The position numbers and the translations under genes were made by a program. A stretch of 64,000 bases of DNA from Alphaproteobacteria bacterium (GTDB lineage: Bacteria; Pseudomonadota; Alphaproteobacteria; Rhizobiales; Rhizobiaceae), in contig JANSYK010000001.1 of NCBI GenBank assembly GCA_024742485.1, forward strand, positions 1,364,001 through 1,428,000. Direction: 5' to 3'. Each line of letters opens with the position of its first letter. Within the stretch, counting starts at the first letter, position 1. Below are positions 5,894-48,805 of this stretch, piece after piece. The notes beneath the pieces were generated by a model that saw only the letters and a program-made list of their open reading frames with translations, was not told the DNA's origin and did no database searches.

Positions 5894-7561
5894 TCAAACA
5901 TCTTCCGACAGCAACCGTCCGGCTGCGGCACGGGCTTCGTCCGTAATGGTGGCGCCGGCAAGCATGCGGGCAATTTCCTCCTGGCGGGAGGCATCATCCA
6001 TCGTACGTACCCTTGTCGTCAGCGAATCCTTGCTCTTTACACCCTTGGCGATCAGCAGATGGGTCGAGGCCCGGGCTGCAACTTGAGGTGCATGGGTGAC
6101 CGACAGGACCTGGACGGTATCAGACAGACGTTTCAGTCTTTGGCCGATGGCATCGGCCACGGCTCCTCCTACCCCGGTGTCGATCTCGTCAAACACCAGG
6201 GTCGGCGCCGATCCGCGATCCGCCAGCGCAACCTTCAGCGCAAGCAGGAACCGAGACAGCTCGCCACCTGAGGCCACCTTGAGAATGGGCCCGGCCCGGG
6301 TACCCGGATTGGTCTGCACATGAAAGGCCACCTGATCGAAACCATCGGCGCTAAGCTGTTCCGCATCGCTTGCGATTTCAACGGTAAACCGGGCCCGGTC
6401 GAGCTTCAGCGCCGGCAATTCTGCCATGACGGCCGCTGACAGGGTTTCGGCCGCAGCCTGTCGTCCTTCCGATAGTGCGGCGGCGGCTGTCCGGTAGACA
6501 GAAAGCGCTTCGTCGACCTTGGTGGCCAACAGCGCCAATTGTTCTTCACCGGCATCGAGATCGGCCAACGCCGCCACCATCCGCTCTGCAAGTGCCGGCA
6601 ATTCGGAAACCGGAACGGAGTATTTGCGTGACGCTGCCCGCAGGGCAAACAGGCGTTCCTCGCAATCCTCCAATTCGCGCGGATCGAATTCGGCTTCCGC
6701 AATGGCGGTATCGACGGCCATCTGGGCATCCGCCAGTTGATTGATTGCGCCATCCATCGCGGCGATGACATTGTCCAGAAGACCGGGCACCTCCGCCGAT
6801 TTCCGTTCCAGCTTGCGCAATAGCGAATTGAGCAACGGTACAGGCGAGGTCTGGCCGGAGAGAATATCCTGCGCCTCATTGATGTCAGCGGCGATCTTTT
6901 CCGCCTTCATCATGGTCGCCCGGCGTTCGGCAAGATCGTCCTCCTCCCCGTCAATCGGCCCAAGCCGTTCCAGCTCATCAACAGAGTCGCGCAGATAATC
7001 GGCTTCCCGGGCTGCCTCTTCCACTTTCTCCCTGTGTTCGCGGTGGGCGCGTTCGGCAAGTCGCCACGCCTGATAACATCGCGACACATCCCGCGCTTGT
7101 CCGGTCAGACCGCCAAAAGCGTCCAGCAACAGCCGATGGGCATCAGGTTCAACAAGCGCGCGGTCATCGTGCTGTCCGTGAATCTCCACCAGAAGTTTGC
7201 CAAGCTGGCGCATCAGGGACACGCTGGCCGGCTGGTCATTGATATAGACCTTGGTGCGTCCGTCGGCGCCCTGGGTTCGTCGGAAGATGAGATCGCCGTC
7301 ATCCTCCAGCCCGTTTTCGCGGATCAGGCCACGCGCTGGATGATCGGCCGGAACATCGAACACTGCGGTTACCTGACCGCGTTCGCTGCCCTCGCGCACC
7401 AGATCACCATCGCCGCGGGCACCAAGCGCAAGGGAAAGGCTGTCGAGCAGGATCGACTTGCCCGCACCGGTTTCACCGGTCAGCACGGACAGTCCGCTTT
7501 CGAACGTCAGATCGAGCCGATCAATCAGTACGATATCCCGGATCGACAAGTGTGTGAGCAT
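5894..7561 (-). CDS. recN: DNA repair protein RecN
   Basis: An SMC-like ATPase of 555 residues that acts early in recombinational repair of double-strand breaks. The Walker A motif GETGAGKS is at residues 29-36. A long central coiled coil follows (about 160-370), then the ABC signature SGGELSRFLLALK and the Walker B region LVFDEIDTGVGG. The frame stays open 30 codons further upstream, but MLTHLSIRDI is the conventional N-terminus, so the ATG at 7561 is chosen. It follows bamD after about 200 bases without another gene. RecN next to bamD and ligA after the ftsZ-lpxC genes is a common rhizobial order. Confidence 0.95.
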   Translation of the reverse strand: MLTHLSIRDIVLIDRLDLTFESGLSVLTGETGAGKSILLDSLSLALGARGDGDLVREGSERGQVTAVFDVPADHPARGLIRENGLEDDGDLIFRRTQGADGRTKVYINDQPASVSLMRQLGKLLVEIHGQHDDRALVEPDAHRLLLDAFGGLTGQARDVSRCYQAWRLAERAHREHREKVEEAAREADYLRDSVDELERLGPIDGEEDDLAERRATMMKAEKIAADINEAQDILSGQTSPVPLLNSLLRKLERKSAEVPGLLDNVIAAMDGAINQLADAQMAVDTAIAEAEFDPRELEDCEERLFALRAASRKYSVPVSELPALAERMVAALADLDAGEEQLALLATKVDEALSVYRTAAAALSEGRQAAAETLSAAVMAELPALKLDRARFTVEIASDAEQLSADGFDQVAFHVQTNPGTRAGPILKVASGGELSRFLLALKVALADRGSAPTLVFDEIDTGVGGAVADAIGQRLKRLSDTVQVLSVTHAPQVAARASTHLLIAKGVKSKDSLTTRVRTMDDASRQEEIARMLAGATITDEARAAAGRLLSEDV

Positions 7562-47429: not shown

Positions 47430-47670
47430 GGCGTGCAATCTTCCTCGTAATGGGGGACATAAATGATTGCGCTGCTTTTAGGCAAACTGGGAAAAGAGGG
47501 CAATGCCCTTATTGGATTGCAGACAGTCCCTGTCGATTGGACAATCACAGTCGAGTGCATTTCGGAAAACAAATGTGACATCACACTTGGCTCTCTAAAG
47601 CGTGATATTTTTCAAAGTCTTCGTGACACCACTTTACAATTCCATCGTCTAGGTTGCGCCTGTCCCAAAC

Positions 47671-47704: not shown

Positions 47705-47938
47705 ATGAACAGCAAATCGAAAAAAGCACTCGCAATGATGGTCGTCAGCGGTGGTCTGGCAGCAGCTGTCGCATCGACGGTCCCTGCAACTGCATCCTGC
47801 GGTGCCTGCGGCGCGACCGTCAGCGCCTGTAGCGCCTGTGGTGCTTGCGGCGCCTGTGGTGCCAAGAAGAAGAAAGCCTGCGGCGCATGTGGTGCTTGCG
47901 GCGCATGCGGAGCCTGTGGCGCCAAGAAATCCAACTGA
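47705..47938 (+). CDS. Secreted cysteine-rich CGA-repeat peptide (77 aa)
   Basis: The ATG at 47705 follows the good ribosome site AGAGGAG. Residues 1-30 are a typical Sec signal (MNSKSKKALAMMVV, cut after PATA). The mature part of about 47 residues is nearly all Cys, Gly and Ala: 11 cysteines at 32, 35, 42, 45, 48, 51, 59, 62, 65, 68 and 71, mostly three residues apart, in two blocks divided by KKKK and ended by KKSN. Codons in the repeats vary freely (GGT/GGC/GGA, GCC/GCT/GCA, TGC/TGT), so the protein pattern seems selected, not produced by recent slippage. It resembles metallothionein-like or Cys-based RiPP precursors (compare the EGKCG repeats of HvfA-type metallophores), but none of the known maturation genes is next to it. 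Function unknown. Confidence 0.85.
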   Translation: MNSKSKKALAMMVVSGGLAAAVASTVPATASCGACGATVSACSACGACGACGAKKKKACGACGACGACGACGAKKSN

Positions 47939-47946
47939 TCTGATTT

Positions 47947-47979
47947 GACATGCCGGGACCGTCTGGCTCCCGGCATGTC
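47947..47979 (+). terminator. 12-bp perfect stem-loop after the Cys-rich peptide gene
   Basis: GACATGCCGGGA (47947-47958) pairs without mismatch with TCCCGGCATGTC (47968-47979) around a 9-base loop. No T-run follows, so it may be a weak or factor-assisted terminator or an mRNA-stabilising end that raises peptide expression over the downstream gene. Confidence 0.5.
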
Positions 47980-48067
47980 GGTTGGCGTCGGCGCAACATG
48001 GCCATCGACACCATGTTCCTGTAGCCTTTGGCCAAGCCAATCTTAAATTTTCCGGATTATCACGAGA

Positions 48068-48805
48068 ATGAACGTCACCGTCCGAGACAATCCCGAGATC
48101 GACTTTTCCGCCCTGCCGCGAGACAGATTGTTGGCGATGCAATCCGCCGCCGACCAGATGATCGCCGTACTCGAGGAGGCGGCCGAAGAACAGAAGCATG
48201 TCCTTATCGATGTCCTGAACGCCACGGCGCCTGACGCCTTTACACAATGGCAACATTACCCGCCCGGCGATATTCATGACCGGGAAAATGGTGCCCTGTG
48301 GTTCTACCATGCGCATGCCGAAGATGAGGCTGCAAGACCCTGGGCCGAGCACGGGCATTTTCACCTCTTCGTCTACACAGAACACGTCAAAGAGGATGTC
48401 GAACCGATCGCCCTTCCGCCCGAGCCGGATATGGAACTTGGTGGCCTGTGCCATTTGGTGGCCATCTCCTTTGACCAGGCCGGCACACCGATGCGCATTT
48501 TCACCACCAACCGGTGGGTCGCCATGGAATGGCAGTATCCCGCCGAAGAAGTCATACGGCTGCTGGATCACTTCGTCATTGAAAACGAGGAATTTGCTCT
48601 GACAAGCCGTTGGCTGATGGCAGCCCTGAAGCTGTTCCGGCCGCAGATCGAGTGGAGCTTGCAGGAACGGGACAAGGTGATCGCAAAATTGCGCGAGAAT
48701 GATCCCGAAGGCTTTTCCGAGGATGAATCAATCGAGGTTCTTTCATCTTTCCCGTTTGATCTCGGCAGTCAGATCGACTCCATCGAAGCCGCTCTTTCAA
48801 ACTGA
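48068..48805 (+). CDS. Uncharacterised HGHFH-motif protein (245 aa)
   Basis: A soluble acidic protein without signal peptide or membrane helix. The N-terminal third is helical (AMQSAADQMIAVLEEAAEEQ); the middle contains histidine-rich motifs WFYHAHAED and AEHGHFHLF, then a beta-rich part LCHLVAISFDQAGTPMRIF and TNRWVAMEWQYP; the C-terminus is helical. The HGHFH core suggests metal binding. From memory it matches a domain-of-unknown-function family (I believe DUF6969), which I cannot verify here. It follows the Cys-rich peptide on the same strand after 130 bp with a stem-loop between, so a functional link is possible but unproven. The start at 48068 has only a weak GAGA ahead. Confidence 0.75.
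   Translation: MNVTVRDNPEIDFSALPRDRLLAMQSAADQMIAVLEEAAEEQKHVLIDVLNATAPDAFTQWQHYPPGDIHDRENGALWFYHAHAEDEAARPWAEHGHFHLFVYTEHVKEDVEPIALPPEPDMELGGLCHLVAISFDQAGTPMRIFTTNRWVAMEWQYPAEEVIRLLDHFVIENEEFALTSRWLMAALKLFRPQIEWSLQERDKVIAKLRENDPEGFSEDESIEVLSSFPFDLGSQIDSIEAALSN

What the first reader, a model, noticed from the sequence alone, without database searches (positions are those of the whole stretch)
47705..48805. Secreted 11-cysteine CGA-repeat peptide beside an uncharacterised HGHFH protein
The sequence shows a 77-residue precursor with a clear signal peptide and a mature part of about 47 residues holding 11 cysteines mostly at three-residue spacing, in two blocks split by KKKK. Codon choice in the repeats varies, so the pattern is kept by selection on the protein. 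The next gene encodes a soluble protein with HAHAED and HGHFH motifs. A strong stem-loop sits between them, as expected when a peptide must be made in excess of its partner. Established comparison: Cys-repeat peptides such as HvfA-type metallophores and bufferins bind copper and are modified by DUF692/DUF2063 proteins, which are absent here. Inference: this could be a new metal-binding or post-translationally modified peptide system with a different partner enzyme.
Basis: partly seen in the sequence, partly recalled or inferred. Interest (0 to 1): 0.78.

Follow-up and report, generated by a model that had tools for sequence, protein, structure and literature searches.

The report
Cysteine-repeat peptide with DUF6969 partner
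A small exported protein made largely of regularly spaced cysteines sits beside a gene of an unstudied family, and the same pairing, with many different cysteine-repeat proteins, recurs in other Pseudomonadota, which points to an apparently undescribed system for handling sulfur or metals outside the cell membrane.

The parts
47705..47938 (+). secreted Cys-repeat peptide precursor, 77 aa, 11 Cys; signal about residues 1-31, mature part about 46 aa (cleavage site by eye)
   Evidence: translation; in the own genome only it and the Cys-P460 protein match below E 0.1; homologues upstream of DUF6969 in the 9 nearest loci
48068..48805 (+). DUF6969 protein, 245 aa, no signal peptide by eye; five invariant His (81, 83, 97, 99, 129)
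   Evidence: Pfam PF22308 E 2.2e-60, 204 bits against cut-off 27; 74-row alignment; AlphaFold2 pLDDT 90.5, pTM 0.90
47946..47980 (+). stem-loop between the two genes
   Evidence: z -4.2; also folds in the 6 relatives given
47622..47651 (+). conserved ECF-promoter-like element CGTGA-N19-CGTCTA upstream of the peptide; sigma factor not identified
   Evidence: aligned in 7 loci; the search form hits the same place in the window, L062, L066 and L067, with variants in L063-L065 by eye; the same form also hits elsewhere in 6 other loci and twice in 796 kb of controls

Best explanation
The two genes are the minimal form of a widespread two-part system: an exported, thiol-rich repeat peptide and its dedicated cytosolic partner, DUF6969. 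SHOWN: the two kinds of gene recur together in Pseudomonadota, the Cys residues are kept while the residues between them change, and DUF6969 keeps a set of invariant His on neighbouring strands. INFERRED: DUF6969 binds a metal ion through these His and acts on the precursor before export, recognising its conserved signal region and oxidising or otherwise altering some Cys; the matured peptide then works in the periplasm as a multi-site carrier or buffer for sulfane sulfur or a soft metal such as Cu(I). In other genomes the same kind of repeat is fused to c-type cytochromes or placed beside a sulfur importer and a rhodanese, which suggests that carried sulfur is oxidised or taken in there.
For: Neighbourhood: strict detector 23/30 (order), 12/17 (phylum), 37/80 (nearest in genome contigs) against 1/120 control windows (Fisher P 6e-20, 1e-12 and 9e-17, which treats loci as independent); the one control hit is a BufA2 bufferin, so the detector picks real precursors. 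Read by eye, without reading the controls the same way, 7 more loci have one: L054, L055, L056, L069, L135, L283, L286 (L286 is the weakest). Genome level: in 150 genomes of the order 15 of the 18 with a Cys-repeat profile hit also have DUF6969, against 27 of 150 overall; without the 8 genomes that gave rows to the profile it is 7 of 10 (P 2e-5); 2 of the 3 exceptions are wrong-frame matches. Of 39 genomes searched whose DUF6969 locus had no hit with the narrower detector, 14 have a profile match outside it, 12 of them confirmed as in-frame Cys-P460 proteins. His 81, 83, 97, 99, 129 are invariant in 74 of 74 sequences, on or just past strands 76-82, 94-103 and 127-136 of a confident model. Signal codons 2-25, six relatives against the window: 55 synonymous, 16 non-synonymous changes in 144 comparisons. 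Sulfur and redox neighbours elsewhere: Sulf_transp, Rhodanese, SoxA-TsdA, Cytochrome_P460, FGE-sulfatase. One locus, L285, has an MNIO, DUF2063-like and DoxX-like genes (labels by eye), the Cys peptide and DUF6969 in a row on one strand.
Confidence: 0.5

Rival explanations
1. The peptide is an unmodified periplasmic metallothionein-like metal buffer, and DUF6969 is a cytosolic metal-binding chaperone or metal sensor of the same stress response, not an enzyme.
For: Eleven Cys, mostly at C-x-x-C spacing, suit thiolate clusters (sequence); five invariant His; an ECF-promoter-like element upstream; no enzyme homology found.
Against: No metallothionein family match at E up to 1; beside YeeE some peptides hold only two to four Cys, some in long Pro/Ala tails, few for clusters; the neighbours that I named by family are sulfur and redox genes, not metal pumps, though not all neighbours were named.
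Confidence: 0.22
2. The Cys-repeat protein is a periplasmic sulfane-sulfur (persulfide) carrier that feeds YeeE-type importers or c-type cytochromes; DUF6969 handles the imported sulfur in the cytosol, for example as a persulfide or thiosulfate enzyme, and never touches the peptide.
For: In the order sample 9 loci, in two divergent groups of the DUF6969 tree, have rhodanese and YeeE beside DUF6969 and a small secreted peptide with two or more PC motifs next to DUF6969; the same set in S. meliloti LMB1; three genomes of about 2 Mb have the peptide and a rhodanese, and the one read in full, L287, also YeeE-like halves and an ArsR-like gene (labels by eye); SoxA/TsdA-like fusions.
Against: The window pair and its 9 nearest relatives have no YeeE or rhodanese within 4 kb; pairing with very diverse Cys-repeat proteins rather than with one sulfur enzyme favours action on the repeat itself.
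Confidence: 0.2
3. Co-location is incidental: low-complexity Cys ORFs drift next to an unrelated gene.
For: 33 of 127 loci lack any such neighbour.
Against: 1 of 120 control windows; synonymous changes prevail in the peptide against its close homologues; 9 of 9 nearest loci keep the order peptide then DUF6969; genome-level co-occurrence.
Confidence: 0.03

Closest known systems
Bufferins (BufA1/BufA2) with MNIO (PF05114, formerly DUF692) and DUF2063 partners
   Same: Small Sec-exported Cys-rich precursor encoded beside a dedicated partner; the signal region may be part of the recognition (passages of PMC12452194).
   Different: No MNIO found in the window, no BufA match for the peptide, repeats of x-(P/A)-C type, partner is DUF6969 and matches no other Pfam family at E up to 1; modification unproven.
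Pfam DUF6969 (PF22308)
   Same: The partner protein is a member by the curated cut-off.
   Different: The family has no function by name and is in 0 papers of the library searched; the link with Cys-repeat proteins is the new part.
Metallothioneins
   Same: Dense Cys-x-x-Cys, small size.
   Different: Exported, no family match, paired with DUF6969; in other genomes fused to cytochrome domains.
Formylglycine-generating enzyme / EgtB / OvoA superfamily (SUMF1, PF03781)
   Same: A SUMF1-like protein with signal-like start, C264 and C267 kept in 33 of 34 members, lies within 4 kb of DUF6969 in 8 of 30, 27 of 80 and 3 of 17 loci.
   Different: Not beside the window pair; one copy 61% identical lies elsewhere in the genome; not needed, since the genomes of relatives L066 and L068 have none at E 1e-20.

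Membership tests
DUF6969 (PF22308) | score over Pfam gathering cut-off | tested here: met
   204.1 bits against 27
DUF6969 (PF22308) | conserved His set HxH ... HGHFH ... H | tested here: met
   H81, H83, H97, H99, H129 in 74 of 74 rows
Bufferins (MNIO-modified copper RiPPs) | precursor matches a BufA family model | tested here: not met
   0 NCBIfam families at E up to 1; the same library finds BufA2 in a control region
Bufferins (MNIO-modified copper RiPPs) | MNIO gene beside the precursor | tested here: not met
   none in the 64-kb window by phmmer with the genome's own MNIO; that copy is about 850 kb away
Bufferins (MNIO-modified copper RiPPs) | DUF2063-type partner beside the precursor | not tested
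   no DUF2063 model was run over the window; the two downstream proteins run are DUF6969 and an alpha/beta hydrolase
Bufferins (MNIO-modified copper RiPPs) | Sec-type signal peptide on a Cys-rich precursor | tested here: met
   basic start then hydrophobic stretch, by the simple in-script rule; no signal-peptide program was on hand
Bufferins (MNIO-modified copper RiPPs) | Cys converted to thiooxazole | not testable with these tools
   needs mass spectrometry
Metallothionein | match to a metallothionein family model | tested here: not met
   only a weak double-zinc-ribbon match, E 0.58, under cut-off
Metallothionein | metal-thiolate cluster | not testable with these tools
   needs metal analysis
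Known fold of a solved protein | structural match of the DUF6969 model | tested here: inconclusive

The most novel reading that the evidence does not exclude
DUF6969 is a new class of peptide-modifying metalloenzyme with a fold not yet seen in solved structures. It installs a Cys-derived group on x-(P/A)-C repeats, from small peptides like this one to cytochrome-fused proteins with dozens of CxxC motifs, creating periplasmic polymers that store or conduct sulfane sulfur or Cu(I) to c-type cytochromes.
Probability: 0.25. Interest if true: 0.95.

Novelty: new variant of a known kind. Interest (0 to 1): 0.8.

Why it matters
It ties a protein family without a known function, present in 27 of 150 genomes sampled from the order and 20 of 398 from the phylum, to a clear candidate substrate, and it unites many Cys-repeat ORFs, two of them with over 60 CxxC motifs, into one system. 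If DUF6969 modifies them, it is a route to modified thiol-rich peptides independent of MNIO enzymes; if it does not, it is still a new kind of periplasmic sulfur or metal handling. The window holds about the smallest version, two genes, so it can be tested by co-expression and mass spectrometry.

Tried and rejected
Rejected: (1) bufferin membership. (2) SUMF1/FGE as a necessary third part: absent at E 1e-20 from the genomes of two window-clade loci, L066 and L068, present in those of L063 and L067 (3 of the 23 genomes given have it). (3) The C-x-x-P-R-[LI] motif inside Cys-P460 proteins (28 of 41 entries; about 25 of 35 after dropping six loci held twice, recounted by eye) as a SUMF1 substrate motif: L096, L101 and L138 carry it and so does L083, but their genomes have no SUMF1 match at E 1e-20. 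(4) RpoE1/RpoE4 (ECF26, sulfite) as the sigma factor: the published consensus GGAATA/GT (passages of PMC6180224) does not fit CGTGA-N19-CGTCTA; the sigma factor stays open. (5) MNIO enrichment near DUF6969: none (4 of 127 against 2 of 40).

Weak points: other detectors gave other counts: 16/30, 35/80 and 0/40 control regions; with a Cys-density rule 16/30, 42/80 and 2/40 at threshold 5, 15/30, 38/80 and 2/40 at 6, 13/30, 30/80 and 0/40 at 7, with some hits in those sets plainly chance. The tree puts the window with L058 (100/100) but the split between Cys and YeeE rows has support 45/28 only, and long branches meet. Four genome-contig loci (L080, L093, L114, L122) appear to be the same contigs as order loci L039, L035, L042, L033 (equal contig lengths); counts are given per sample, and the total of 127 holds these four twice. 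The 80 loci are the best of at least 575 relatives, so they lean towards the window's sequence. Loci are related, so Fisher values overstate. Loci L035, L043 and L093 end at a contig edge soon after DUF6969, and L279 begins just before it. In one search, 40 of the 45 loci without a hit were given, 39 searched; several of the 40 (L069, L090, L108, L135) do have a near peptide by later readings.

Full report
WHAT IS THERE. The peptide ORF is 47705-47938 (+): MNSKSKKALAMMVVSGGLAAAVASTVPATAS followed by a mature part with 11 Cys. The next gene, 48068-48805 (+), is Pfam DUF6969 (E 2.2e-60, 204 bits, cut-off 27) and has no NCBIfam match at E up to 1. The peptide has no match over a cut-off in Pfam or NCBIfam. 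Between them a stem-loop at 47946-47980 folds far better than shuffles, and one folds in the 6 of 9 relatives given. Upstream, at 47622-47651, an ECF-promoter-like element is conserved in the window clade.

THE PAIR IN CLOSE RELATIVES. A scan of genome contigs with a 14-row DUF6969 alignment found at least 575 relatives; the best 80 were kept. The nine nearest (56-85% identity, from records titled Rhizobiaceae, Nitratireductor, Pararhizobium, Flavimaribacter, Rhodobiaceae, Salaquimonas and Phyllobacteriaceae) have an exported Cys-rich peptide just upstream on the same strand: eight by script and L069 by reading. In the eight measured, and the window, the peptide ends 62 to 196 bases before the start of the DUF6969 match. 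The repeats already differ here: CGACGA in six, CNPCAAK in L068 and L070. Codons of the window against L062: 34 identical, 29 synonymous, 10 non-synonymous; against the more distant L070: 24, 18 and 32. The signal region is also held: 73 identical, 55 synonymous, 16 non-synonymous codons in 144 comparisons with six relatives; no control set of signal peptides was made. None of these ten loci has SUMF1, YeeE or rhodanese within 4 kb.

THE PAIR ACROSS THE ORDER AND PHYLUM. DUF6969 is in 27 of 150 genomes of the order and 20 of 398 of the phylum, and in none of the 14 control genomes of those calls. I fetched 29 order loci beside the window, one of them the second copy of the window's own genome, 17 further phylum loci and 40 control regions of about 20 kb from the same genomes. 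A strict detector (signal-like start, then at least 3 x-(P/A)-C motifs within 45 residues) within 3 kb of DUF6969 fires in 23 of 30 order loci, 37 of 80 genome-contig loci and 12 of 17 phylum loci, and in 1 of 120 control windows, three from each control region (Fisher values). The single control hit is a BufA2 bufferin with an MNIO beside it, so the detector recognises genuine precursors. Reading by eye adds L054 and L055, L056, L069 and L135, L283 and L286; the controls were not read that way. Earlier detectors and their control counts are told under Tried and rejected.

GENOME LEVEL. A profile of 18 Cys-repeat peptides hits 18 of 150 order genomes; 15 of them have DUF6969. Two of the other three are wrong-frame matches: G086 over a Met/Gly-repeat protein read on the other strand, G128 over a collagen-like repeat. 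G037 is a real exception with a Cys-P460 protein and no DUF6969 match. Eight of the 15 gave rows to the profile; without them 7 of 10 have DUF6969 (P 2e-5). Twelve DUF6969 genomes of the 27 have no profile hit; the YeeE-type peptides are not caught by it. Of 45 loci without a hit I gave 40 to the search; 39 genomes could be searched and 14 have a profile match, of which 12 hold an in-frame Cys-P460 protein; the match in G168 is weak (7e-5). 9 of 9 Azospirillum genomes have none.

SUBSTRATE VARIETY AND NEIGHBOURS. The Cys-repeat proteins fall into stand-alone peptides, fusions to Cytochrome_P460 (PF16694), fusions to SoxA-TsdA cytochrome (PF21342) and fusions to a BLH/DSP-phosphatase-like domain. 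One P460 fusion has 68 CxxC motifs (L040). A SUMF1/FGE-like protein (PF03781) lies within 4 kb in 8 of 30, 27 of 80 and 3 of 17 loci. Nine order loci, in two divergent DUF6969 groups, have Sulf_transp (PF04143) and Rhodanese (PF00581) neighbours, and each of the nine has a small secreted peptide with two or more PC motifs next to DUF6969. S. meliloti LMB1 carries the same set. The window genome has a second DUF6969 next to a Cys-P460 protein and a SUMF1-like protein elsewhere.

HOW IT PROBABLY WORKS. The constant parts are the Cys in an x-(P/A)-C setting, an export signal and a protein without a signal that has a His-rich site; the rest of the repeat protein is free to change. That pattern fits a maturation partner acting before export better than a partner that binds one folded product (inference). 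Neighbours in other genomes (sulfur importer, rhodanese, SoxA/TsdA-like and P460 cytochromes, SUMF1) suggest that the carried ligand is sulfane sulfur, with Cu(I) the main alternative. Nothing here measures modification, metal or sulfur.

KNOWN SYSTEMS. The nearest working analogue is the MNIO-bufferin pair (passages of PMC12452194). The window pair is not a member: no BufA match, no MNIO nearby. In L285 an MNIO, DUF2063-like and DoxX-like genes (by eye), a Cys peptide and DUF6969 follow one another, and in L046, L108 and L131 an MNIO lies within 10 kb, but MNIO is not enriched overall (4 of 127 against 2 of 40). DUF6969 is named in 0 papers of the library. I therefore call it a new variant of a known kind, with a categorically new enzyme as the bolder reading.

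Noticed in passing
own genome G000:C154:823357-826962 (L003, L047): Second DUF6969 of the same genome beside a 500-aa exported protein with 35 CxxC motifs and a P460-like C-terminus.
   Followed up: partly
L285 5109-8633: MNIO, DUF2063-like and DoxX-like genes (last two by eye), a CGAK-repeat peptide and DUF6969 in one apparent operon, joining the bufferin set and DUF6969.
   Followed up: partly
Cys-P460 proteins listed: A conserved C-x-x-P-R-[LI] motif in the middle of the low-complexity Cys repeats in 28 of 41 entries (six held twice), like an enzyme recognition site; not tied to SUMF1.
   Followed up: partly
L290 (S. meliloti Rm41 pSYMA) about 6001-6491: The DUF6969 match lies in two pieces, so the gene looks broken in this strain, while LMB1 (L291) has an open frame in a YeeE-peptide-DUF6969 set.
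   Followed up: no
L071-L079, L084, L087, L100 (Azospirillum): DUF6969 downstream of MlaD and ABC_trans_aux genes in several of them, no Cys-repeat protein found near or in the 9 genomes searched; a different role or substrate is possible.
   Followed up: partly
L279 1031-1842: An ECF-sigma-like gene and a small Cys-containing, anti-sigma-like ORF directly after DUF6969 (labels by eye), a lead for regulation.
   Followed up: no
L034 9301-9888, L037 10720-11289, L040 1919-2371: Secreted cupredoxin-like small protein family (label by eye, no Pfam match for the two copies run) beside DUF6969.
   Followed up: no
L037 14497-15039 and relatives: Secreted thermonuclease-like protein (label by eye, no Pfam match) at the end of several Cys-P460 clusters.
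   Followed up: no
L251 1-380 (G086), - strand: A secreted Met/Gly-repeat protein (GMSGMGGM repeats) of another kind, met as a wrong-frame profile hit.
   Followed up: no
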